Assembly: GCA_028285025.1 (NCBI GenBank) | Contig: JANQQH010000089.1 | Span: 1 to 19,626 of the forward strand | Origin: Hyphomicrobiaceae bacterium | GTDB taxonomy: Bacteria; Pseudomonadota; Alphaproteobacteria; Rhizobiales; HXMU1428-3 | Length of the DNA stretch: 19,626 nt | Reading direction: 5' to 3' | Shown here: positions 1-16,824 of the stretch, piece after piece | Numbering within the stretch: the first letter of the stretch is position 1 | Layout: each line of letters opens with the position of its first letter | The notes under the pieces: generated by a model | Databases searched by the model: none | Told to the model about the DNA's origin: nothing | Seen by the model: the letters and a program-made list of their open reading frames with translations, nothing else | Program-made: the position numbers and the translations under genes

Positions 1-2587
1 ATTCAATTGGATCATCAATGCGTTTATAGTTGATGTTTGTCTCAACAGCCGGCGATCCATGATAGTTTTTACCATCTGGAACATGTTGATGCTCTTGCAG
101 GCTTGAGGTGTGACCCAATTGGGTGTTGTTGCCCATTGAGCTGTTTATTTCAATAACCGTTCCTTGCCCAACAAAGACGTTGTCTCCAATTTTTACCGGG
201 CCAGTGTGGATATAACCATCTTGTGCTTTGTAGCCTGTTAAATAGCAATCCTTTTGCAAAATGCAGTTATCGCCTATTTCCAACATGTCTGTGCAGGTGG
301 GAACATACTTTGTGTTGATGACTGTGTTTTTGCCAATTTTTGCCCCCATAAGTCTGAGGTAAAAATTATAAGCTGGACTGCCTGCAAATAGAACAAAGAT
401 ACTTGAGCCCATAAAGCTGCGCGCTAGCCAAAAACGAAGATATGCAAGGCTCCAAATTGGAATGCGTTCTTCTTTCCATTTTCCGACAAGCACTTTTTTC
501 GCCAGAAACGGAATGCCAAGGGAGATGATAAAGAATGCCCACCCAAGACCGAGCATTCTCAAAAAGAAGTCCATCATTGATGGCGAAGCAATGACCCAAT
601 TCAGCAGTGTGATCCCAATGGCTACATTGTATGCGAGAAAAAACAGCATATATGCAATTTGTAATGCTCCGCACAAATAGTAGTCTTTGGCGCTTGCAAT
701 ATGTTGAGCATCACGACGCAATGGTAATGTCGCCTCGTTCTGTTCTTCTGATTGAGTGTCTATCAGAGTTGAAAGTTTGCGAATTGTTGGGTTTTGATAA
801 ATTTCTCTCATCGAAATTTCGATTGGTTTTCCCAACTTGTCTTTCGACATATTTTTTAGTTTCGCGGCAAACTGGGCCATTAACAGCGAATGGCTGCCAA
901 GGTCATCAAAGAAATGGTCGTCAATAGAAACACCTTCGATGCGCAAGGTCAGTGCCAGAGCTTGCGCCGTTAGTTGCTCGGTGGGGGTGCTTGGGGCAAT
1001 GTACTCATTTGAACTTCTTTGTGCCCGCTTGCCAGAAGGGGCGGGCAGTTTTTTGCGATCAGCCTTATCACTGGGAGTCAATGGAATGGCATCTAATTTT
1101 TCAAAATAGCCAGGGATCATATAACTTGGCAAAGCGCTTTTAAGGGCGTTGATTATATCCGTTGTTGGGATATCCTGACAGTCTTCTGCAAGCGCATAAT
1201 AAGCAACAAGTTCTGGCTCTCCTGGTTCCATTTCATATGTATCGACAACCGCTTGAGCAATGCCTGGAATTTGAAGAATGATGGATTCTATCTCCGTTAA
1301 CTCAATACGATATCCGCGAACTTTCACCTGGGTGTCAATGCGTCCAAGATATTCGATCTGATGTTGTTTGTTAAATCTGCCCAGATCTCCTGTGCGGTAG
1401 ATTTTACTTGAAGGGTTTTCAGGTAATCCAATAAAGTCTGAGATAAAGGCTTTTTCTGTTAATTCGGGTCTGTTGAGATACCCATTGGCCAAGCCGATAC
1501 CGCCAATGCAAATTTCTCCCACCTCGCCATCGGGAAGCTCTACATTTTCGTCTGCTTTTAAGATAGCGACTGAATAGGTCGGCAAAGGGTGCCCAATTGT
1601 TACAGGCTCATCTGGGTGGAGCTGGGTAAATGTGGCCGTTACGGTTGTCTCGGTTGGCCCATAAGCATTCAAAAAAGTGCGCCCTTTTTTATGCCATCTC
1701 ACAACCAAGTTATGAGGGCAGGCTTCACCTGAGACCAGTAGAAATCTTAATTTGGGTAGATCTTCTTCTATTGTTGCCAGTAGGGTTGGGCAGCAACACA
1801 ATGCTGTTACATCATTTTCTATCAGATAATCTGACAGATCTTTTCCAACCAGGTTTGTATCTCCCCGGCCCGGGACCAGGGTTGCGCCGGCAGCAAATGC
1901 AACCCATATTTCTTCAACGGAAAAATCAAAGGCAATGGTCATGCCTTGATACATACGATCTGTCTGTCGGACGCCATAAGCTTCAACGGCAACATGCACA
2001 AAATTGCAAATACTCGGGTGCTCGATCGTCACACCTTTGGGGTTACCAGTTGTTCCTGAGGTGTAAATTATATAACAAAGCTGTTCGCGGGCTTTTCCCT
2101 TTTCCTCGTCCGTTAGTCTTTTTTTGGATATTTTTTCAAGATCAATTTCTGGGTCATCTAAGGTTAGAATTGATGTATTAATTCCATCTAGAACATTTTT
2201 GAGCTCTTCTAGAGTTAGAACTTTTGTTACATTTGCGTCTTTTAGGATAAAGGCGATGCGATCTTGTGGAAACCCTGCATCTAAAGGAATGTATGCCGCG
2301 TTTAATTTTAAAACAGCCAGCAGTGATATATACGTGTAAATTGATTTGTTAAAGAGCAAACCAACCCGGTCTCCAGATTTTACGCCTTGTTTTGCAAGGT
2401 ATCTTGCGAACTGGTTGGCCTTTTCTTCAAGCTCTTTATAACTTATCGAATGTTCTGCATTATCAATAGCCAAATGAGAGCCTTTGCCCTCATTGATCAG
2501 TTTGTCGCAGGTTTTTTCAAAGACATTATCTAGTCTTTCCCCTTGTTGCCATCGGATGAAGTTTTCGTGATGAGGGGACATATACAT
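1..2587 (-). CDS. Pls/PosA-type single-module NRPS (3' end outside window)
   Basis: The frame is open from ATG at 2587 to the window edge, giving 862 residues without a stop. Residues 1-515 form an adenylation domain with the A3 core YTSGTTGNPKGV (175-186), A4 FDFS (220-223), A5 NAYGPTE (307-313), YRTGD (397-401), GRIDTQVKVRGYRIE (415-429) and A10 lysine K508. A carrier domain follows, with DDLGSHSL and phosphopantetheine Ser567. No condensation or thioesterase domain is seen. After residue 635 come hydrophobic segments (about 637-661, 680-695, 725-742), then hexapeptide-like turns from 744 (IGKNTV, IGDNC, IGDNVFVG). This order matches the Pls/PosA family, membrane synthetases making isopeptide homopolymers of basic amino acids such as epsilon-poly-lysine and delta-poly-ornithine; family members are about 1300 residues. 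It lies 80 bases downstream of an EctB-like aminotransferase on the same strand, so diaminobutyrate is the likely monomer (inference). ATG at 2581 is an alternative start. Confidence 0.9.
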   Translation of the reverse strand, partial: MYMSPHHENFIRWQQGERLDNVFEKTCDKLINEGKGSHLAIDNAEHSISYKELEEKANQFARYLAKQGVKSGDRVGLLFNKSIYTYISLLAVLKLNAAYIPLDAGFPQDRIAFILKDANVTKVLTLEELKNVLDGINTSILTLDDPEIDLEKISKKRLTDEEKGKAREQLCYIIYTSGTTGNPKGVTIEHPSICNFVHVAVEAYGVRQTDRMYQGMTIAFDFSVEEIWVAFAAGATLVPGRGDTNLVGKDLSDYLIENDVTALCCCPTLLATIEEDLPKLRFLLVSGEACPHNLVVRWHKKGRTFLNAYGPTETTVTATFTQLHPDEPVTIGHPLPTYSVAILKADENVELPDGEVGEICIGGIGLANGYLNRPELTEKAFISDFIGLPENPSSKIYRTGDLGRFNKQHQIEYLGRIDTQVKVRGYRIELTEIESIILQIPGIAQAVVDTYEMEPGEPELVAYYALAEDCQDIPTTDIINALKSALPSYMIPGYFEKLDAIPLTPSDKADRKKLPAPSGKRAQRSSNEYIAPSTPTEQLTAQALALTLRIEGVSIDDHFFDDLGSHSLLMAQFAAKLKNMSKDKLGKPIEISMREIYQNPTIRKLSTLIDTQSEEQNEATLPLRRDAQHIASAKDYYLCGALQIAYMLFFLAYNVAIGITLLNWVIASPSMMDFFLRMLGLGWAFFIISLGIPFLAKKVLVGKWKEERIPIWSLAYLRFWLARSFMGSSIFVLFAGSPAYNFYLRLMGAKIGKNTVINTKYVPTCTDMLEIGDNCILQKDCYLTGYKAQDGYIHTGPVKIGDNVFVGQGTVIEINSSMGNNTQLGHTSSLQEHQHVPDGKNYHGSPAVETNINYKRIDDPIE

Positions 2588-2667
2588 AATTTTTTACTCG
2601 TTATATGAGACTTGGTTTTGGTTCTCTTGATTTTTGTTGCTTTTAGAACAGCCAAGGGCTGAGCGGT

Positions 2668-3951
2668 TTATTCAGCCGCAAGGGGCATTTTCTCATGGAG
2701 GCATTCGAGAATGGCGTTTTCCAGAATATCAAGTCCCTCATTTAGCTGTTCAATTGTAATTGTTAGCGGCATAAGGCATTTAATGACTTCATCGTTTGGC
2801 CCTGCTCGCTCGATGATGAGGCCCTTGGTAAAGACCTTAGAAACAACGTCTTGTGCCATTGCTGGATCATAGAAGCATATTCCGCGCATCATTCCACGAC
2901 CACGGGTTTCTTTTATAATATGATTGAAGCTCGTCTTGATCTCTTCCAATCGCATCGACAAATGCCGAGACTTTAACTCTACGTTTTTTGAAAAAGTCAG
3001 GTCAGACCAATATTCTTTCAGCATGGCTGTTGCTGTTACAAACGCATGGTTGTTGCCTCTAAAAGTGCCGTTATGTTCACCTGGTTTCCACACATCCAAT
3101 TCACGTTTGAACAGGACGATCGATAGCGGTAAGCCATAGCCGGAGAGGGACTTTGACAAGGTTACAATATCAGGGACAATGCCTGATTTCTCAAAGCTAA
3201 AGAAGGTACCTGTTCTTCCGCACCCTGCTTGGATATCATCAACAATCAGCAAGATTTCATGTTTACGGCAAAGTTTTTGGAGACGCTGTAGCCATTCTAC
3301 TCTGGCAGTATTGAGGCCTCCTTCACCTTGTATTGTTTCAACAATGACAGCGGCTGGCAGATCAAGGCCGCTTGAATTGTCCTGGATAAGCGTGTCTAAA
3401 TATTTAATGGTATCAAAGCTGTCATCTAAATACCCATCAAATGGACAAAAGCTCGTGCCATGAAGGGGCATGCCCGCGCCCCCGCGGTGGTGTTTATTGC
3501 CAGTTGCTGCAAGTGCTCCAGCACTTACGCCATGAAAACCGTTGGTAAAACTAATAACATTGGTGCGGCCTGTAACTTTTCTCGCAAGCTTTAAGGCCGC
3601 TTCAACAGCATTTGTACCGGTTGGCCCTGTGAATTGAATGACATAATCTAGGTTGCGGGGCGCTAAAATGTTGTCCCGCATTGTTGTTAGGAATTCCTCT
3701 TTGGCCTTTGTGTGTAGGTCAAGCGAGTGCGTGATCCCGTCTTGTGCAATGAAGTCCAACAGGGCTTTTTTGAGGAAAGGATTATTATGGCCGTAGTTTA
3801 GGGAGCCTGCACCGGCTAAAAAGTCTAAATATCTATTTCCATTTACATCCCAAATTTCAGCCCCTTTTGCTTTTGATAAAGTTTTAGGAAAGCTACGAGC
3901 ATAGCACTGAACTTGTGATTCCAATTCGTTGAAAATTGAACCTCTAGACAT
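2668..3951 (-). CDS. ectB: L-2,4-diaminobutyrate aminotransferase, EctB type
   Basis: This is a 427-residue class-III PLP aminotransferase. EctB enzymes make L-2,4-diaminobutyrate from aspartate-4-semialdehyde, with glutamate as amino donor. Family hallmarks visible are NYGHNNP (52-58), QFTGPTGTNAVEAALKLARK (106-125), the PLP-phosphate region FTNGFHGVSAG (135-145), VDDIQAGCGRTG with PLP-contacting Asp238, TLSKSLSGYGLP with Schiff-base Lys267, and GEHNGTFRG. Length and motifs match ectoine EctB closely. However, neither the acetyltransferase EctA nor ectoine synthase EctC is present in the window; the next gene downstream on the same strand is a Pls/PosA-type NRPS. The enzyme probably supplies diaminobutyrate to that synthetase (inference). 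The upstream gene is divergent, so this is the first gene of its unit. The ATG at 3951 has only AGG about 11 bases upstream, a modest ribosome binding site. Confidence 0.92.
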   Translation of the reverse strand: MSRGSIFNELESQVQCYARSFPKTLSKAKGAEIWDVNGNRYLDFLAGAGSLNYGHNNPFLKKALLDFIAQDGITHSLDLHTKAKEEFLTTMRDNILAPRNLDYVIQFTGPTGTNAVEAALKLARKVTGRTNVISFTNGFHGVSAGALAATGNKHHRGGAGMPLHGTSFCPFDGYLDDSFDTIKYLDTLIQDNSSGLDLPAAVIVETIQGEGGLNTARVEWLQRLQKLCRKHEILLIVDDIQAGCGRTGTFFSFEKSGIVPDIVTLSKSLSGYGLPLSIVLFKRELDVWKPGEHNGTFRGNNHAFVTATAMLKEYWSDLTFSKNVELKSRHLSMRLEEIKTSFNHIIKETRGRGMMRGICFYDPAMAQDVVSKVFTKGLIIERAGPNDEVIKCLMPLTITIEQLNEGLDILENAILECLHEKMPLAAE

Positions 3952-4398
3952 ACCTTTTTCTACCTATTTAATATGATGCAACGTTTGATTTGGTTAATAA
4001 AGAACCGTTTCATCAGGTTTTGTTCATGAATGATTTGGAAAGTAGAGAGCAACATGCATGCCACTGATTATTTGGGGCTCACGGGGGAGTGCTGGGATGA
4101 TTTTATGATTAATCTCAATCTAGAAAATCATTAAGTCATTGATATTTATTGATATTTATTGGTATCTTTATGACGCTTTTGTGACTGCTTTTTTTTGCTG
4201 TTTTATGGGAAACTGTTTCTAAAATTATCCTTGTATCAAAAGATAACAGTTATTAAGAACTCTAACCAAAATAGTACAGTTCACCATATTTTGTGCATTA
4301 GCAGATCTTCTTTTATGGCTAAAAATTTTTGTATTCGCTTTCATATGACTTATATACTTATAGTTTAGGACTTTGAAAAAAGGTTTGTTTGCGTAACA
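3952..4398. other. Divergent intergenic region
   Basis: This 447-base AT-rich spacer separates the minus-strand aminotransferase/NRPS unit from the plus-strand ClpP-like gene, so it must hold promoters for both. I see no convincing ORF. The only clear structure is a short tandem repeat at 4138-4167. Confidence 0.7.
4138..4167. repeat. Three tandem 10-base units
   Basis: Two exact copies of ATTGATATTT are followed by a degenerate third, ATTGGTATCT. The spacing is close to one helical turn. It lies about 190 bases upstream of the aminotransferase start, in the divergent promoter region, so it could be an array of regulator half-sites. In such AT-rich DNA it could also be chance. Confidence 0.5.
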
Positions 4399-5049
4399 AT
4401 GAATGTCTTCAGACTATTTCATAATTGGATACCGAGCTTGCGGAATTTTCTCATTGGTGTTGTGTCTTTATTTTTAATTATCGTTTTCTTTTGCAGAGCT
4501 TGGAGTTTCAGTTTGGTCTCACTTCCAGATGATATGACTTTTACGCCGTCTGGTGATGCTTTAATCATTAATGGCGAAACTCAGTCTGACACTTTGGCTA
4601 AATTTAAGACCGCATTGGATCAATATCCTGGTACCCGCACCATAATTTTGAATATTGTACCTGGTTCAGATGATGATGACGTGAACTTGAAAATGGCTCG
4701 GGTTATTCGAAAAAAGAACTTATCCACCCATTTAACCAAAGACTCTATTATTGAATCTGGTGGTATTGAGCTGTTTATGGGCGGTGTTGAGCGTACCATG
4801 GAGCGAGGCGCTCTAGTTGGTGTTCACAGTTGGAGTGATGACGATTATGGTTATGAAGCGCATGAGCTACCGAAAGATCATAAGGATCATAAACCTTATA
4901 TTAAAACGTATCAAAAGCTAGGCATCCCCAAGAGTTTTTATTGGTTTGTCGTCAATGCTGCACCCTCAGATGGCATGCATTTTATGACAGAGGATGAGAT
5001 TGTGGGCTTTAATTTGCTTACCAAGCCTATTATAGAGCCCGATCAATAG
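4399..5049 (+). CDS. Membrane-anchored ClpP/crotonase-fold protein (COG3904-like)
   Basis: This 216-residue protein has an N-terminal membrane anchor (about 17-31) and a C-terminal domain outside the membrane. The order of elements resembles the COG3904 group of predicted periplasmic ClpP-fold proteins: the strand RTIILNIVPGS (80-90), the helix MARVIRKKNLST (99-110), then IIESGGIELFMGGVERTMERGALVGVHSW (117-145, written here across its conserved part). Ser120 sits where the ClpP-type nucleophile would be and His143 in GVHSW is conserved. The Cys residues that flank the serine in many relatives (CASAC) are absent. The C-terminal part, GIPKSFYWFV and DGMHFMTEDEI, also fits the family. Function and substrate are unknown. 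It is probably a single-gene unit: its left neighbour is divergent and a terminator covers its stop codon. The ribosome binding site is weak. Confidence 0.7.
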   Translation: MNVFRLFHNWIPSLRNFLIGVVSLFLIIVFFCRAWSFSLVSLPDDMTFTPSGDALIINGETQSDTLAKFKTALDQYPGTRTIILNIVPGSDDDDVNLKMARVIRKKNLSTHLTKDSIIESGGIELFMGGVERTMERGALVGVHSWSDDDYGYEAHELPKDHKDHKPYIKTYQKLGIPKSFYWFVVNAAPSDGMHFMTEDEIVGFNLLTKPIIEPDQ

Positions 5050-5077
5050 CTTTTTATAAACTCAAGCTATTTTTTTT
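5045..5077 (+). terminator. Intrinsic terminator overlapping two convergent stop codons
   Basis: AATAGCTT (5045-5052) pairs perfectly with AAGCTATT (5064-5071) around an 11-base loop and runs into a T tract ending at 5077. The left arm includes the TAG of the plus-strand gene, and the stop codon of the minus-strand gene (5062-5064) lies at the loop and right-arm boundary. It is a good terminator for the plus strand and lacks a matching T run for the minus strand. Confidence 0.75.
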
Positions 5078-5508
5078 ATGTCGATTGATAGCTTTGGAGT
5101 GAAAGCCAGAAAATTATGTCCAATAAGTGCCCCTGTTTCTTTGCTTGGATCGACCACCTTCCAGCCGTTCATTGATAATTCTTTAATCGCTTGGGTGTAG
5201 GAGGGCCTTTTATCCTTAACGGTCCCGATCAAAGCGTAACTATATTTTGCAATTGAGGGGCAGGATTTAAATTCATCAGAAGAGAGCACCACACCAATTG
5301 CAACGTTTGAGACTTGTAGCAATTTGATTAGTTTGGGGTTTGGGCATCCTTGAAACAAGATTAATGTTTCAGTTGCTCTTTGAAAGAATTTGTAACTGTT
5401 TGCGTCTCGGTCTGAAATTAGGTCAGAAATATTATCATTAATATTAGCAGACCCATTTTTTTGACTGGTATGTTGATGTATTGATTTTTTTGTTTCGTAG
5501 TTTGCCAT
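5062..5508 (-). CDS. Hypothetical protein, unrecognised family
   Basis: This 148-residue protein has no family I recognise. The first 35 or so residues are rich in Asn, Ser, Gln and Lys and look disordered. From about residue 40 the sequence looks like a compact alpha/beta domain: the strand ETLILFQGC, the helix NPKLIKLLQVS, the strands VAIGVVLSS and YSYALIGTV, and a final HNFLAFTP. There is no signal peptide and no membrane segment, so it is probably cytoplasmic. The ATG at 5508 has AGG eight bases upstream. Its stop codon lies within the terminator of the convergent gene. Nothing about the neighbours gives its job. Confidence 0.6.
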   Translation of the reverse strand: MANYETKKSIHQHTSQKNGSANINDNISDLISDRDANSYKFFQRATETLILFQGCPNPKLIKLLQVSNVAIGVVLSSDEFKSCPSIAKYSYALIGTVKDKRPSYTQAIKELSMNGWKVVDPSKETGALIGHNFLAFTPKLSIDIKKIA

Positions 5509-5752
5509 CTTAAACCTGCTATATATCCAGATGTGCTTTTGTAGATTAAGCAGTGTAGTTGGCCCAAATTTTATCCTTTATAATTCTTTAATAACAAGTA
5601 AGTTTGCATATTATGCTTAACGTAGACAATCTTGATTTTAGTTGTATAGACAAGATCATCAGCAATTATTTAACCATAAAAACTAAGGGGTAAGAGAGCT
5701 AGGCTCAGGACCTATTCATCTTATGTTTTCAGCGCGCTTAAACCAATCCAAT

Positions 5753-6202
5753 TTATGCTGAAATTTTCTCCAAAATACTCTTCCACCAGGGCAAACCTGT
5801 AACCTCTGGTGGCTCAGAAGTAGACGCATCATAAATGCCGCGTTCACCTACCATATTCGCATTACAGGCCAGCATCGCCTCCATCAGTTTTTGCGAGCCT
5901 TGGGCAAATGTTTCTCCGAATGACTCATCTCCCAATCCAAAAACTGCGAAATTTATATGACTTAGATCCGGTTTTTTTTCTAATAGATCATCATAAAATT
6001 CGTCAGCAGTGCTCGGGACATCTCCAGATCCAAATGTTGCACTTACAATAACGTAGAATGTATCACGATCAAGATTGGTCGGGTCGATACTATTCATCTC
6101 AGAAATCTCACATTCGAATGTCTGGGGCGATTCATCTTTAAAATCATCGCAGAGATACTGTGCATTGCCGCTTTCAGTACCGTAAATAAAATGTATTTTC
6201 AT
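5753..6202 (-). CDS. Flavodoxin domain protein, MioC-like
   Basis: This 149-residue protein is one flavodoxin-like domain. The FMN phosphate loop is YGTESGNAQ (7-15), followed by VSATFGSGDVPSTADEFYDDL in which ATFGSGD (about 55-61) forms the second FMN loop, and FAVFGLGDESFGETFAQGS (84-102) supplies the third. Flavodoxins of this short-chain type carry FMN and pass single electrons in the cytoplasm. The short length and acidic character resemble MioC and the flavodoxin domain of sulfite reductase or cytochrome P450 reductase. No reductase or partner enzyme is adjacent, so its redox partner cannot be read from the context. It appears to be monocistronic. Confidence 0.88.
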   Translation of the reverse strand: MKIHFIYGTESGNAQYLCDDFKDESPQTFECEISEMNSIDPTNLDRDTFYVIVSATFGSGDVPSTADEFYDDLLEKKPDLSHINFAVFGLGDESFGETFAQGSQKLMEAMLACNANMVGERGIYDASTSEPPEVTGLPWWKSILEKISA

Positions 6203-6604
6203 ATTTTTTCTATTTGTTAAAAGTTTTATAGGGTCAAGATCTATTAATTTTACTCATTTTGAGCCCACTCACCAGTTTACCAATAGGCAAAAAGGTGAAT
6301 GAATTGTAGTTCATTTTCAAGCCTTTCTATTACACTTTTAAAGGGATGATAAGGTGTACAAAGGATTGTGTTTGCAGGGTTCAGAATTTGAAAACAGCGC
6401 TAAGAATAAGGCATTAATCTGAGCAGTATATTGATTTAGCCAATGATTACAATAGAGTTGATTGGTAATAGATGCGCGGTTATGTCTATCTTCTTCTTGC
6501 CTTAAACATACGATCACCGACATTTAAATAAAACCCATTAATGCCTATTACGCTGTAATGTAAAAGTAAAAAACTTTCCGCTACAAATAAGATAGAACAT
6601 AGAC
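6203..6604. other. Intergenic region without a supported gene
   Basis: This AT-rich 400-base spacer holds the upstream region of the flavodoxin. A 61-codon open frame on the minus strand (6338-6523) lacks a ribosome binding site and a protein-like composition, and I do not accept it. An imperfect inverted repeat near 6332-6359 (TACAC and GTGTA ends) is the only other structure I see. Confidence 0.6.
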
Positions 6605-6638
6605 AAAAACAGGAGGCGAAAAGTCACCTCCTGTTTTT
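6605..6638 (-). terminator. Intrinsic terminator of the zinc-ribbon/LysR unit
   Basis: AAAAACAGGAGG (6605-6616) pairs perfectly with CCTCCTGTTTTT (6627-6638) around a 10-base loop. The 12-bp stem carries A and T runs on both sides, so it can work in either direction. It lies 20 bases past the stop of the minus-strand zinc-ribbon gene, and that is the gene it most likely ends. Confidence 0.85.
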
Positions 6639-11113: not shown

Positions 11114-11686
11114 GTGCAAATATCAAATGATAGCGAAGATATAAAAAAGCAATTTTTGAGTGGATTGAAAGGTGATCGCGCCGCTTATCAGACGGCTTTG
11201 CTTTTGCTTTCAAATCGCATCAGAGCCTATGTAAACAACAAACTAGGCCGGTTCCATTCTCAATGCGACATTGAAGATGTTGTTCAAAATATCCTCATCG
11301 CAATCCACGAAAAGAGATGGACATATGATACCAAAAGGGAGCTGATGCCTTGGGTATTTGGCATTTCAAAATATAAGGTCCTACAGTTTATTCGCTCTTG
11401 TCGTCGGCGAAGCGCAGTCATTACTAACTTTGAAGTTGATACAAATCATGAACTAGAAAACACCATCAAAATAGATCAAGAATATTTTGAAAACTTCTCG
11501 AAAACTGATCTGAACCTCCTATTGTCCCGACTAAGCAAGGAACAGCGCGAAGCTGTGCAACTAACAAAAATAAAGGGGTTGTCATTTTCTGAAGCGGCAG
11601 ATCAGGCCGGCGTTAGTCTGAGTGCAATGAAGGTCCGCGTTCATCGCGCTATGAAACGGCTGGAACAGGAAGCAAAGGAAATATAA
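11114..11686 (+). CDS. ECF sigma factor (SigF-like)
   Basis: This 190-residue protein has two sigma-70 regions and nothing else, as in ECF factors. Region 2 spans about 20-100, with CDIEDVVQNILIAIHEKRWT and PWVFGISKYKVLQFIRSCRR. Region 4 spans about 132-186, with LSRLSKEQREAVQLTKIKGL followed by the helix-turn-helix SFSEAADQAGVSLSAMKVRV. ECF factors direct RNA polymerase to stress promoters and are held by a membrane anti-sigma. The next gene, three bases downstream, encodes an NrsF/DUF1109-type anti-sigma, which points to the SigF-like group known from Caulobacter for heavy-metal and oxidative stress. The start is GTG with TAGGA 11 bases upstream. The divergent thioredoxin and ccdA genes are likely targets (inference). 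Confidence 0.92.
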   Translation: MQISNDSEDIKKQFLSGLKGDRAAYQTALLLLSNRIRAYVNNKLGRFHSQCDIEDVVQNILIAIHEKRWTYDTKRELMPWVFGISKYKVLQFIRSCRRRSAVITNFEVDTNHELENTIKIDQEYFENFSKTDLNLLLSRLSKEQREAVQLTKIKGLSFSEAADQAGVSLSAMKVRVHRAMKRLEQEAKEI

Positions 11687-11689
11687 ATC

Positions 11690-12292
11690 ATGCATACGCA
11701 AGACTTAATTGAAATGCTTGCCGCTGATGTTCAGCAAGGCACAAAACGTTCTGTTACTTGGAAACTGTTGGCGATAGCTTTGGTGGGCCTGTCAAGCTCT
11801 ATTCTGCTTCAATTCTTTAGCGCTGGTTTGCGCGCCGATGCACCGATAGCTTGGCCAGCAATTATTGTAAAGCTGATCGTTTGCATCATACTTGGACTTA
11901 TCTGGGCTGGGTATTTGCGCTCACTCAGTTCACCTGGTCGTAACAGCTGGGGTCACTTTGTTTTTGCTTTCGTTGCAATTGGATCAGTTGTGTTTTTAGG
12001 ATTGCTATCATCGTTCAATTTTTCCGGCCTAACCGGTTGTCTAATGCAAGTCTGGCTCCTTTCGATCCCAGCATTCATTGGGCTGGTTTGGCTGCTCCGC
12101 TCGGCAGCTCCGGTGCGCAGTGTTTCTACAGGGTTTGCCATTGGCATATTGGCTGGCATCATCGGGACATTTGGTTATGCATTTGGATGCATGACTGATC
12201 AACCATTCGAAGTTGCATTCAGATATGGTGGATCCATTTTAACACTTGGCGCGCTCGGTGCTATGCTTGGCCCTTTTATGTTAAAATGGTAG
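11690..12292 (+). CDS. NrsF/DUF1109-family anti-sigma factor
   Basis: This 200-residue protein has six predicted membrane helices (about 24-42, 55-77, 88-107, 117-136, 146-166 and 178-196) and a short cytoplasmic start, HTQDLIEMLAADVQQGTKR, typical of the DUF1109 family. Such proteins hold a SigF-type ECF factor at the inner membrane and release it when two conserved cysteines sense the stress. Here Cys117 (GLTGCLM) and Cys167 (YAFGCMTDQP) lie exactly 50 residues apart in the later helices, consistent with the paired sensor cysteines described for NrsF. The gene starts three bases after the sigma factor stop and is certainly cotranscribed with it. Cys65 is an additional, probably non-sensing cysteine. 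Confidence 0.88.
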   Translation: MHTQDLIEMLAADVQQGTKRSVTWKLLAIALVGLSSSILLQFFSAGLRADAPIAWPAIIVKLIVCIILGLIWAGYLRSLSSPGRNSWGHFVFAFVAIGSVVFLGLLSSFNFSGLTGCLMQVWLLSIPAFIGLVWLLRSAAPVRSVSTGFAIGILAGIIGTFGYAFGCMTDQPFEVAFRYGGSILTLGALGAMLGPFMLKW

Positions 12293-15598: not shown

Positions 15599-16180
15599 TT
15601 ATTCCATTTGTCTAAACCAATCTCGAAGTGATAAATGGAGTCTGACAACTTCATCCTCTGCAAGTGATTTACAGTGGGCAATCGGTGCACGCAAAGTGTT
15701 TAGGTTTCCTAGAACCTTTTCTAGACCACGAATATCACGGAACATATCACCAAATATGTTCCAATTAGTCTTAATAATCTCGCTAAGTTCACCAAAATTA
15801 CTATAGTCGATAAGTTCATCTGAACGTGGCGTAACCCCTGTAGAAAGCTCTTTCTTTTTATTTTTTTCAGCATTTGTTCGCACAGTGTTAGGAACAGCAG
15901 CATCCCACCACTGTGACCCGTGAGCCTCTTCTAATCGTTGAGCAACAAGTTGTCTAATTGAGTTCTCTAAGCAGTAAAAGATCGTATAATGCGTGGCCAT
16001 TGCGGCTGCCTCGTGCCTTAACTGCTCAGGAAACTGCGGGTAGTAGTCGTGCTCAACTTGCTCAGGCCCCTCTGATTTTCGTCCAATATCCAAATCGTAC
16101 TCATGCGCAATGCGACGAAGGTCAGCTTCAATAGCAAAGTTGTTCAAGCTGAACAGTCGTAATGCATCTTCTTTTTTCAT
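15599..16180 (-). CDS. Swt1-type HEPN domain protein, probable ribonuclease
   Basis: This 193-residue protein resembles Swt1-like HEPN domains. After a charged N-terminal region (1-60) comes the helix THYTIFYCLENSIRQLVAQR (63-82), then HGSQWWDAAVP (87-97), a Lys/Glu linker, YSNFGELSEIIKTNWNIF (126-143), and NTLRAPIAHCKSL (161-173). The last holds the Rx4H motif, Arg164 and His169, that forms the metal-independent RNase site in active HEPN proteins. Such proteins act in toxin-antitoxin and abortive-infection systems. The ATG overlaps the stop of the DUF5343 gene by four bases (ATGA), so the two are translationally coupled. The likely reading is a toxin paired with its upstream partner, but it could also be a non-toxic RNA-binding subunit. 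Confidence 0.8.
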   Translation of the reverse strand: MKKEDALRLFSLNNFAIEADLRRIAHEYDLDIGRKSEGPEQVEHDYYPQFPEQLRHEAAAMATHYTIFYCLENSIRQLVAQRLEEAHGSQWWDAAVPNTVRTNAEKNKKKELSTGVTPRSDELIDYSNFGELSEIIKTNWNIFGDMFRDIRGLEKVLGNLNTLRAPIAHCKSLAEDEVVRLHLSLRDWFRQME

Positions 16181-16824
16181 TTTTTCAGCAAGTTCTCTTT
16201 GAGTGACTTAAAAATGGTATTAAATACTTCTGGGTTTGTTGTCTCAGGCAAAACTAAATTTATAGTGTAAGCAAGGTTCAGCCCAACATCCCCAGTTTGT
16301 TCCGCTAAATGTTGCGGATTGTTGTTTGCAGGTACAGTCTCTACGTTAATATCTTGGGTCAGCGTAATTGGATTATCGGATGCTTCCTCATACGTTTCGT
16401 CAAAATCAGCAAAATCTTTAAGTTTCAAAAAAGTAGATAGCGTCGCCTCTACCGTCCTATCATCGTGCGCTGCACCTGTAACTTCAACAATCAGTGCTCT
16501 CAATTTTTCCTTCGAAAGATCTCCCGCGTAACGATTTCGATCAAATAATTCCGCGTAAGCATTTCGCATTCCCTCAGCAATTGCTGTGCCTTGGGTAGTC
16601 ACATTTCTAAAACGGTCATAAAGGGACGTTGGGGTACCATCTGAGTTTAACAAGTCCATACGCTTGAGCAATGGAATTATCGGTTTTGCGCTACCACCCG
16701 AAAAACCAAGTTTAGTGTCAAGAAAGTCTTGGGTAAATCTATCTGGTTTACGTGCTTCCTGAATTTTAGTGAGAATCTTTGTTACCAAACCTGAAGACAA
16801 CATATATGGTAGCTTTGTCGACAT
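16177..16824 (-). CDS. DUF5343-family protein, partner of the HEPN protein
   Basis: This 215-residue protein begins with a DUF5343-like domain: LPYMLSSGLVTKILTKIQEA (5-24), RKPDRFTQDFLDTKLGFSGG (25-44), AKPIIPLLKRMDLLNSDGTP (46-65), then TSLYDRFRN and AYAELFD (about 89-95). The pattern suggests a winged-helix fold with unknown ligand. The later part includes NPQHLAEQTGDVGLNLAYTI (169-188), followed by NLVLPETTNPEVFNTIFKSL (189-208), which looks like an 'NI-x-LP-x-T' segment seen at the end of several regulatory proteins. It is the first gene of a two-gene unit with the HEPN gene and overlaps it by four bases. Regulator or antitoxin is a reasonable guess; the family's function is not established to my knowledge. 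Confidence 0.75.
   Translation of the reverse strand: MSTKLPYMLSSGLVTKILTKIQEARKPDRFTQDFLDTKLGFSGGSAKPIIPLLKRMDLLNSDGTPTSLYDRFRNVTTQGTAIAEGMRNAYAELFDRNRYAGDLSKEKLRALIVEVTGAAHDDRTVEATLSTFLKLKDFADFDETYEEASDNPITLTQDINVETVPANNNPQHLAEQTGDVGLNLAYTINLVLPETTNPEVFNTIFKSLKENLLKK

What the first reader, a model, noticed from the sequence alone, without database searches (positions are those of the whole stretch)
1..3951. EctB without ectoine genes next to a Pls/PosA-type synthetase: candidate diaminobutyrate polymer pathway
Seen: an EctB-type aminotransferase is followed 80 bases downstream by an adenylation-carrier-membrane NRPS of the Pls/PosA type, with no ectA or ectC in view. Known: Pls and PosA make isopeptide homopolymers of lysine and ornithine, and EctB makes diaminobutyrate. 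Inferred: the pair makes a poly-diaminobutyrate or diaminobutyrate-capped product, which would be a self-contained polycation pathway in an alphaproteobacterium.
Basis: partly seen in the sequence, partly recalled or inferred. Interest (0 to 1): 0.75.

Follow-up and report, generated by a model that had tools for sequence, protein, structure and literature searches.

The report
EctB-fed poly-diaminobutyrate synthetase locus
This stretch of an alphaproteobacterial genome pairs an enzyme that makes the small amino acid diaminobutyrate with a membrane enzyme of the kind that strings such amino acids into positively charged chains, so it very probably makes poly-diaminobutyrate, a polymer that the papers seen here report from actinomycetes.

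Summary
EctB (2668-3951, -) lies 80 bases upstream of a Pls/PosA-type NRPS (2-2587, -) cut by the contig end. The other end of such an NRPS, with a PPTase, is on contig C204; about 250 residues between are unseen. No ectA or ectC was found in the 90%-complete assembly.

The pair is conserved: at least 15 of 397 order genomes (own included) and two Skermanella plasmids. None of the 15 has EctA over the cut-off; 12 have no EctC over it.

The adenylation pocket reads DFECLSAVTK. Phe at position 2 marks Dab/Dap enzymes in published work. The same ten residues occur in a distant Streptomyces enzyme beside dat and ask, genes named in published poly-Dab gene contexts. Among 55 NRPSs, all 17 with a Dab transaminase next door have DFE..S; 37 of 38 without one do not, but independent events are few. 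No PddB-like racemase was found, so the L-polymer is expected.

Best reading: a gamma-poly-L-diaminobutyrate pathway in Gram-negative bacteria, using EctB, apparently taken from ectoine operons more than once. The chemistry is known from actinomycetes: a new variant of a known kind. The product is untested.

The parts
2668..3951 (-). EctB-type diaminobutyrate--2-oxoglutarate transaminase, 427 aa; inferred supplier of L-Dab
   Evidence: TIGR02407 654.6 bits (cut-off 552.2), PF00202 280 bits; 56-62% identical to EctBs of five ectABC operons, L022-L026
2..2587 (-). Pls/PosA-type NRPS, first 862 residues (A domain, carrier domain, first part of the membrane/C-domain region); cut by the contig end
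   Evidence: TIGR01733 406.5 bits, PF00501, PF00550, PF13193, TIGR02353 positions 2-220; 54% to the same-genus homologue in G007
1064..1927 (-). stretch holding the ten pocket residues (D221 F222 E225 C264 L284 S286 A308 V316 T317 K508): code DFECLSAVTK
   Evidence: alignment of 57 NRPSs; offsets from the first Asp equal those of the eight pocket residues numbered for PosA in PMC10522769; coordinates
887..907 (-). carrier-domain attachment motif DDLGSHS, residues 561-567; phosphopantetheine Ser expected at 567
   Evidence: PF00550 28.8 bits; motif scan and coordinates
2588..2667 (.). 80-base gap between ectB and the NRPS gene, no terminator-like site
   Evidence: with the shared strand this suggests one transcript (inference)
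3952..4398 (.). region upstream of ectB, facing a divergent gene; expected to hold the promoter of the pair
   Evidence: the consensus scan of 2300-4450 found about as many promoter-like sites as shuffles do (7 against 5.2, sd 2.5); not tested further

Best explanation
ectB and the NRPS form a two-gene pathway for gamma-poly-L-diaminobutyrate. EctB turns aspartate semialdehyde and glutamate into L-Dab (established EctB chemistry). The NRPS A domain adenylates Dab and loads it on its carrier domain, which the PPTase on C204 activates. The membrane-embedded C1-C3 region then joins Dab units through the side-chain amino group and releases a polycation (known for Pls, PosA and PddA; inferred here). 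Shown here: gene identity, conservation of the pair, pocket code, no EctA, EctC or PddB-like racemase found. Inferred: substrate, L configuration, polymer, operon, joining of the two NRPS ends, release outside the cytoplasm.
For: (1) EctB over the curated cut-off, no ectA or ectC found in the genome. (2) An EctB gene adjoins this NRPS type in at least 15 of 397 order genomes (own included) and on two Skermanella plasmids; 15 of the 16 EctBs scored pass TIGR02407, the sixteenth (G025) being cut by a contig end. (3) EctA over the cut-off in 0 of 15 of these genomes; 4 of 4 EctAs sent, of 18 ectABC loci held, pass the same model. (4) Pocket DFECLSAVTK: Phe at position 2 is reported for Dab/Dap synthetases, Met for Orn, Ala for Lys (PMC10522769). 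(5) The identical ten residues occur in a Streptomyces NRPS beside a Dat transaminase and aspartate kinase, on a distant branch; a figure legend of PMC8117764 names pldA (poly-L-Dab synthetase), dat and ask. (6) Of 55 NRPSs, 17 have a Dab transaminase and code DFE..S, 37 have neither, 1 has the code alone, 0 the transaminase alone. (7) PPTase near the NRPS in 11 of 15 genomes. (8) No PddB-like second DapF in the own genome, and Ala/Thr where presumed PddA homologues have Cys/Ser: points to the L-polymer.
Against: No biochemistry. The window NRPS is incomplete and its link to the C204 half is inferred; about 250 residues are unseen. The transaminase/code association rests on related sequences: only 3 independent contrasts on well-supported branches, p 0.25. 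18 A-domain columns separate the EctB-linked rows from the DFE..G clade, only two of them pocket positions. Phe at position 2 does not separate Dab from Dap. One NRPS has the code without a transaminase nearby (Paenarthrobacter). Among the 120 listed relatives of the G064 NRPS, 29 have Gly at position 6 and their neighbours are unknown. Three of the 15 genomes have an ectC elsewhere, and absence is weak in the incomplete ones (G527 61%, G612 82%, G717 85% complete). Only 2 of 8 genomes of the genus searched have the pair.
Confidence: 0.78

Rival explanations
1. The NRPS activates another diamino acid (Dap, Orn, Lys) and EctB next door serves something else.
For: Phe at position 2 is shared by Dap and Dab enzymes (PMC10522769); the S. 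albulus Dap enzyme also adenylates Dab, more weakly (PMC4668381). A sister clade with DFEALG[T/S]VT[K/N] has no EctB.
Against: It leaves the EctB next door in 15 genomes unexplained. The published Orn code (PosA, DMEHNGTVSK) and the Ala at position 2 of Lys enzymes differ from this pocket. The Streptomyces enzyme beside dat and ask has the identical code.
Confidence: 0.1
2. EctB still serves ectoine or another Dab-derived metabolite, and adjacency to the NRPS is incidental.
For: ectC exists elsewhere in 3 of 15 genomes with the pair; orphan EctBs beside other gene sets exist in the order.
Against: EctA over the cut-off in 0 of 15 and EctC over its cut-off in only 3 of 15; adjacency is found in diverged sequences and in two gene orders, same-strand and divergent.
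Confidence: 0.05
3. The product is gamma-poly-D-Dab, as in Streptoalloteichus.
For: Same synthetase family and substrate class.
Against: Presumed PddA homologues (assigned by organism name only) read DFECLSCVSK, not DFECLSAVTK. DapF-family matches: one frame per genome in 12 of 15, one more on another contig in G025, none in G527 and G612. A racemase of another family was not looked for.
Confidence: 0.04
4. The locus is non-functional or makes only a Dab-loaded or short conjugate, not a polymer.
For: The gene is split over two contigs and about 250 residues are unseen.
Against: The full-length EctB-linked relative scored (G064) keeps the whole terminal domain (633.7 bits, cut-off 423.1) and shows six membrane segments in a crude hydropathy scan; the characterised products listed in the discussion of PMC10522769 are polymers.
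Confidence: 0.07

Closest known systems
pldA, dat and ask (gamma-poly-L-Dab synthetase context) as named in a figure legend of PMC8117764
   Same: Pls-type synthetase with a Dab transaminase in its context; the Streptomyces sp. NBC_01527 locus (NRPS, Dat, Ask) has the identical pocket code DFECLSAVTK
   Different: In the Streptomyces locus the transaminase is Dat-type (435.5 bits TIGR00709; 361.8 for TIGR02407, under its cut-off) and here EctB-type; aspartate kinase adjacent there, none found here; the NRPSs lie on distant branches. The published gene order itself was not seen
PddA-PddB-PddC-PddD (gamma-poly-D-Dab, Streptoalloteichus hindustanus; PMC8225329, passages)
   Same: Single-module membrane NRPS fed by a diaminobutyrate-2-oxoglutarate transaminase
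   Different: Has a DapF-like racemase and a pathway-specific aspartate kinase; presumed homologues of its synthetase read DFECLSCVSK
PosA (delta-poly-L-ornithine, Acinetobacter baumannii; PMC10522769)
   Same: Gram-negative member of the family, A-T-terminal domain, conserved Asp and Glu in the pocket
   Different: Single-gene operon, code DMEHNGTVSK, ornithine substrate
Pls (epsilon-poly-L-lysine, Streptomyces and coryneforms; PMC8117764, passages)
   Same: A-T-C1-C2-C3 with six membrane segments, no condensation or thioesterase domain
   Different: Lysine substrate (Ala at pocket position 2, PMC10522769)
EctB of Paenibacillus polymyxa (Dab for polymyxin E; PMC4454717, passages)
   Same: EctB supplies Dab to an NRPS rather than to ectoine
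   Different: Feeds a modular lipopeptide NRPS, not a homopolymer synthetase
ectABC ectoine operons
   Same: The EctB enzyme family (TIGR02407)
   Different: EctA and EctC were not found here

Membership tests
Pls/PosA cationic homo-polyamino-acid synthetases | Amino-acid adenylation domain followed by a carrier domain with phosphopantetheine Ser | tested here: met
   TIGR01733 406.5 bits, PF00550 28.8 bits, motif DDLGSHS
Pls/PosA cationic homo-polyamino-acid synthetases | Full terminal domain TIGR02353 over its cut-off (423.1 bits) | tested here: inconclusive
   Window has positions 2-220 (210.9 bits); C204 has 471-695 (186.8 bits); middle missing. Full-length relative in G064 scores 633.7
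Pls/PosA cationic homo-polyamino-acid synthetases | No condensation or thioesterase domain | tested here: met
   Pfam finds none in the window part or in the C204 piece; NCBIfam and precomputed Pfam find none in full-length G064/P0121. The unseen 250 residues are not covered
Pls/PosA cationic homo-polyamino-acid synthetases | Conserved pocket Asp (position 1) and Glu (position 3) | tested here: met
   D221 and E225 (rule from PMC10522769)
Pls/PosA cationic homo-polyamino-acid synthetases | Makes an isopeptide homopolymer | not testable with these tools
   needs culture or purified enzyme
Poly-Dab pathway (PddA-D; pldA, dat, ask) | Dab-forming transaminase adjacent to the synthetase | tested here: met
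   EctB 80 bases upstream
Poly-Dab pathway (PddA-D; pldA, dat, ask) | Dab/Dap-type pocket (Phe at position 2) | tested here: met
   DFECLSAVTK
Poly-Dab pathway (PddA-D; pldA, dat, ask) | Dedicated aspartate kinase near the pair | tested here: not met
   A Streptomyces Ask query finds a match over 60 bits only in its own locus L083, not in the window, C204 or the 16 EctB-type loci
Poly-D-Dab pathway (Pdd) | DapF-like Dab racemase PddB | tested here: not met
   The two DapF-family matches in G000 lie next to each other in a 295-aa frame on C214, as expected of DapF itself, not near the pair
EctB (TIGR02407) | Score over the curated cut-off | tested here: met
   654.6 vs 552.2 bits
Ectoine pathway | EctA and EctC present | tested here: not met
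   No match in G000; assembly 90.4% complete

The most novel reading that the evidence does not exclude
Gram-negative bacteria make gamma-poly-L-diaminobutyrate, and the two-enzyme pathway was put together repeatedly: Pls-type synthetases captured an EctB from ectoine operons more than once among alphaproteobacteria, and a Dat-type transaminase in actinomycetes, each time with the same DFE..S pocket. When one alphaproteobacterial branch lost EctB, its pocket changed to DFE..G, so partner gene and pocket together act as a readable substrate switch.
Probability: 0.5. Interest if true: 0.62.

Novelty: new variant of a known kind. Interest (0 to 1): 0.47.

Why it matters
If true, poly-Dab, a polycation that the papers seen here report from actinomycetes, is also made by alphaproteobacteria, including named species with deposited sequences (Hartmannibacter diazotrophicus, Skermanella rosea, Skermanella mucosa) in which it can be tested. 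It explains EctBs in genomes without ectoine genes, which annotation may otherwise read as partial ectoine pathways. It also suggests a simple rule (partner transaminase plus Ser at pocket position 6) for predicting Dab among the many uncharacterised Pls/PosA-type enzymes.

Tried and rejected
Tried and left: reading residue-level alignments to the solved epsilon-poly-lysine synthase (7wew) and 8g95 A domains; the tool printed only top-ranked linear gramicidin synthase chains, so the pocket was placed by spacing against the residue numbers in PMC10522769 (the sixth PosA position is not numbered in the passages seen and was filled in by me; that 8g95 is PosA is recalled). Structure prediction and fold search were not used. 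A first ORF table chose antisense ORFs in high-GC loci and missed some EctBs and NRPSs; it was replaced by an all-frame search. The hydropathy scan is crude: six segments in L033, but nine overlapping peaks each in L029 and L032.

Rejected: ectoine synthesis (no ectA or ectC found in G000); poly-D-Dab as first choice (no PddB-like protein found); Dab-capped product (no evidence either way). Left open: the substrate of the DFEALG[T/S]VT[K/N] clade. By product name, the annotated neighbours in Shinella, Phyllobacterium and Aureimonas include no Dap-forming genes; three neighbours in L034 have no Pfam match; the other loci of that clade were not annotated.

Rows dropped or not fetched: L138 and L139 (partial A domain) before the tree and the 2 x 2 table; L028 and L038 have no NRPS over 300 bits and are not in the 57. 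Of the 46 order genomes with a match, long regions were seen for 42; G572, G696, G745 and G768 were not fetched, nor were G246 and G048, G087, G092. Skermanella mucosa (L186) and the shorter Streptomyces and Pseudonocardia NRPSs (L184, L185, L187) were fetched after the table and are not in it. In the EctB census 2 of 32 places had no locus and were not examined. The genus and order names are not told by the tools; that G064 is Hartmannibacter diazotrophicus rests on a 100% protein match on a contig of equal length. GrsA pocket numbering is recalled.
Full report
OBSERVATION. The window is contig C417 of a 549-contig, 2.41-Mb assembly, 90.4% complete. EctB lies at 2668-3951 (-), 427 aa, 654.6 bits against TIGR02407 (cut-off 552.2). 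The NRPS lies at 2-2587 (-), 862 aa and open at the contig end; it has an adenylation domain (TIGR01733 406.5 bits, cut-off 317.4), a carrier domain and positions 2-220 of the 695-position Pls/PosA terminal domain TIGR02353. The gap is 80 bases, with no terminator-like site.

THE MISSING PART. TIGR02353 has just two matches in the genome: C417 (positions 2-220) and the start of C204 (positions 471-695). The C204 piece is most similar (52%) to the C-terminus of an EctB-linked NRPS, in G717. It is followed by a PPTase (PF01648, 57.5 bits), as in several relatives. So the two contigs very probably hold the two ends of one gene, with about 250 residues unseen. No condensation or thioesterase domain is seen in the window part or the C204 piece (Pfam), nor in the full-length homologue of G064 (TIGR02353 633.7 bits, cut-off 423.1), in which a crude hydropathy scan gives six membrane segments. 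That is the A-T-C1-C2-C3 layout described for Pls (PMC8117764, passages).

NO ECTOINE PATHWAY. ectC (PF06339) and ectA (TIGR02406) have no match in the genome. Among the 15 order genomes with the pair, EctA passes its cut-off in 0 (best 31.4 bits, cut-off 120.6), and EctC in 3 (G044, G527, G714), on other contigs than the pair (G717 has one match under the cut-off). As a control, 4 of 4 EctAs sent, of 18 ectABC loci held, pass the same EctA model. G527, G612 and G717 are 61, 82 and 85% complete, so absence there is weak.

CONSERVATION. A profile of seven NRPSs (alignment A1) matches at E <= 1e-200 in 46 of 397 order genomes, 6 of 385 class genomes and 13 of 398 phylum genomes; the sets overlap. 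I had long regions for 42 of the 46, plus loci from other calls: 59 loci in all, 57 with an NRPS over 300 bits. An EctB-type ORF adjoins the NRPS in 15 order genomes, own included (G000, G007, G025, G044, G064, G527, G612, G619, G691, G714, G717, G718, G723, G729, G770), and on a Skermanella rosea plasmid; Skermanella mucosa adds one more by its annotation. Of the first 16 EctBs, all scored, 15 pass TIGR02407; that of G025 is cut by a contig end (479.4 bits). In G691 and G718 the two genes are divergent, otherwise same-strand with EctB upstream. A PPTase lies near the NRPS in 11 of the 15 (C204 counted for G000; in G527 it is 4.2 kb away). In a census of EctB in 297 order genomes at E <= 1e-140, 32 places were found in 27 genomes: 8 beside this NRPS, 13 in ectABC, 9 beside neither within 1.5 kb, and 2 not examined.

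POCKET. The ten pocket residues are DFECLSAVTK. Their spacing from the first Asp equals that of the eight residues numbered for PosA (PMC10522769, abstract, passages and sections 9, 10 and 14). That paper assigns Phe at position 2 to Dap and Dab synthetases, Met to PosA, Ala to Pls. Codes found next to EctB are DFE[C/A/P][L/I/V]S[A/V]V[T/S]K (16 of 16). The sister clade without EctB reads DFEALG[T/S]VT[K/N] (14 rows). More distant Pls-type enzymes read like PosA (DMEHNG), have Ala at position 2 (DAES) or bear other codes. A Streptomyces sp. NBC_01527 NRPS followed by a Dat-type transaminase and aspartate kinase has exactly DFECLSAVTK. A figure legend of PMC8117764 names pldA (gamma-poly-L-Dab synthetase), dat and ask among the genes of its synthetase contexts; the drawn order was not seen. 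Proteins of Amycolatopsis anabasis and Actinokineospora enzanensis, species for which PMC8225329 reports PddA homologues coupled to PddB (passages), read DFECLSCVSK (P0111, P0120; assigned by organism name, neighbourhood not seen). Among the 120 listed relatives (of 6,484 under the E-value limit) of the G064 NRPS, all have Phe at position 2, 91 have Ser and 29 Gly at position 6; their neighbours are unknown.

TREES. On an NRPS tree built without the pocket columns (55 rows; L138 and L139 dropped), 17 rows have a Dab transaminase (16 EctB, 1 Dat) and DFE..S, 37 have neither, one (Paenarthrobacter) has the code alone, none the transaminase alone. The Streptomyces enzyme is on the other side of a fully supported branch. 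This is strong by counts but weak by independent events: 3 contrasts on supported branches, p 0.25, and six would be needed to reach 0.05. Eighteen A-domain columns separate the EctB-linked rows from the DFE..G clade, two of them pocket positions, so the pocket change is not the only lineage difference. On the EctB tree (44 rows) the NRPS-linked EctBs need 3 changes of state, at least 2 forced by supported branches; such changes may be gains or losses. The Skermanella one nests among alphaproteobacterial ectABC EctBs. That of the same-genus relative G007 lies in a supported five-row clade that leaves out the window's, although the two NRPSs are neighbours with weak support. EctB was therefore most simply taken in, or exchanged, more than once; one early gain followed by losses is not ruled out.

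MECHANISM. EctB makes L-Dab from aspartate semialdehyde (established). The A domain activates it, the PPTase-primed carrier holds it, and the C1-C3 membrane region joins units through the gamma-amino group (by analogy with Pls, PosA and PddA). DapF-family matches come as one frame per genome in 12 of 15, with a further one on another contig in G025 and none found in G527 and G612, and none lies near the pair, so the L-polymer is expected. EctB feeding an NRPS outside ectoine synthesis has a precedent in polymyxin E (PMC4454717, passages).

WHAT IS KNOWN. Poly-Dab, both enantiomers, and a transaminase feeding its synthetase are known from actinomycetes (PMC8225329, PMC8117764, passages; the primary paper, Yamanaka 2020, was not seen). 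PosA is presented as the first such polymer from outside actinomycetes (abstract of PMC10522769). The main text of that paper has no occurrence of ectoine, transaminase or aminotransferase. Searches for the EctB pairing in print showed none in the listed titles and abstract openings of this open-access library; most listed papers were not opened, and subscription papers are not covered. Hence a new variant of a known kind.

LIMITS. No biochemistry; the gene is incomplete; Dab and Dap are not separated by Phe alone; the pair is in only 2 of the 8 genus genomes searched; mis-binning of C417 was not tested beyond the presence of the pair in G007.

On re-reading the calls I corrected two coordinates (pocket stretch, carrier Ser), scored six more EctBs, and softened the statements on the published dat/ask layout and on repeated EctB capture.

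Noticed in passing
window 15599-16824 (-): Overlapping gene pair: DUF5343 protein (16177-16824) and Swt1-like HEPN protein (15599-16180); possibly a toxin-antitoxin or defence-type pair, a guess from the families alone.
   Followed up: no
window 11114-12292 (+): Sigma-70-family (ECF-like) factor followed by an NrsF-family negative regulator of a sigma factor, beside a thioredoxin-like and a CcdA/DsbD-like gene.
   Followed up: no
G590:C74 (L197) and G050:C1 (L198): EctBs without ectA or ectC within 1.5 kb. In G590 two lie either side of a WelO5-family (halogenase-like) protein, with an IucA/IucC siderophore synthetase near; in G050 one lies by a weak WelO5 match (under the cut-off), a methionyl-tRNA-synthetase-like protein and a methyltransferase.
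   Followed up: partly
G603:C21 (L196), also G639:C26 (L177): A second EctB beside a PPTase; in L196 also a PALP enzyme and two ABC transporter genes, and no ORF over 571 aa in the 16 kb seen, so no Pls-type NRPS there: another possible Dab-using cluster.
   Followed up: partly
L076, L078, L079, L080, L034, L118, L119, L121, L125-L130: Clade of Pls-type NRPSs with pocket DFEALG[T/S]VT[K/N] and no EctB next door, nested among EctB-linked ones; substrate unexplained.
   Followed up: partly
L081 (Paenarthrobacter aurescens TC1 plasmid pTC1): NRPS with the Dab-type code DFECLSVVTK but no transaminase within about 7 kb; the one exception to the rule.
   Followed up: no
L082 (Pseudonocardia alni plasmid): Pls-type NRPS with pocket read as DLERVSTVTA, the usual last Lys read as Ala (the alignment may be off there), with a TauD/TfdA-family gene next door.
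   Followed up: no
G007:C30 (L030): The same-genus relative carries a second Pls-type NRPS with code DGESVSVVNK, one residue from the Methylomarinum code DGESISVVNK that PMC10522769 lists as possibly new.
   Followed up: no
P0121 (Hartmannibacter diazotrophicus, G064): The full-length homologue is named 'Linear gramicidin synthase subunit D' by a source, a misleading name.
   Followed up: yes
L120 (G527) 2672-6635 and L031 (G044) 1-990: Downstream of the pair in these two same-genus genomes lies a PALP-family enzyme, in G527 followed by two beta-lactamase-family (PF00144) proteins, possible modifying or degrading enzymes.
   Followed up: partly
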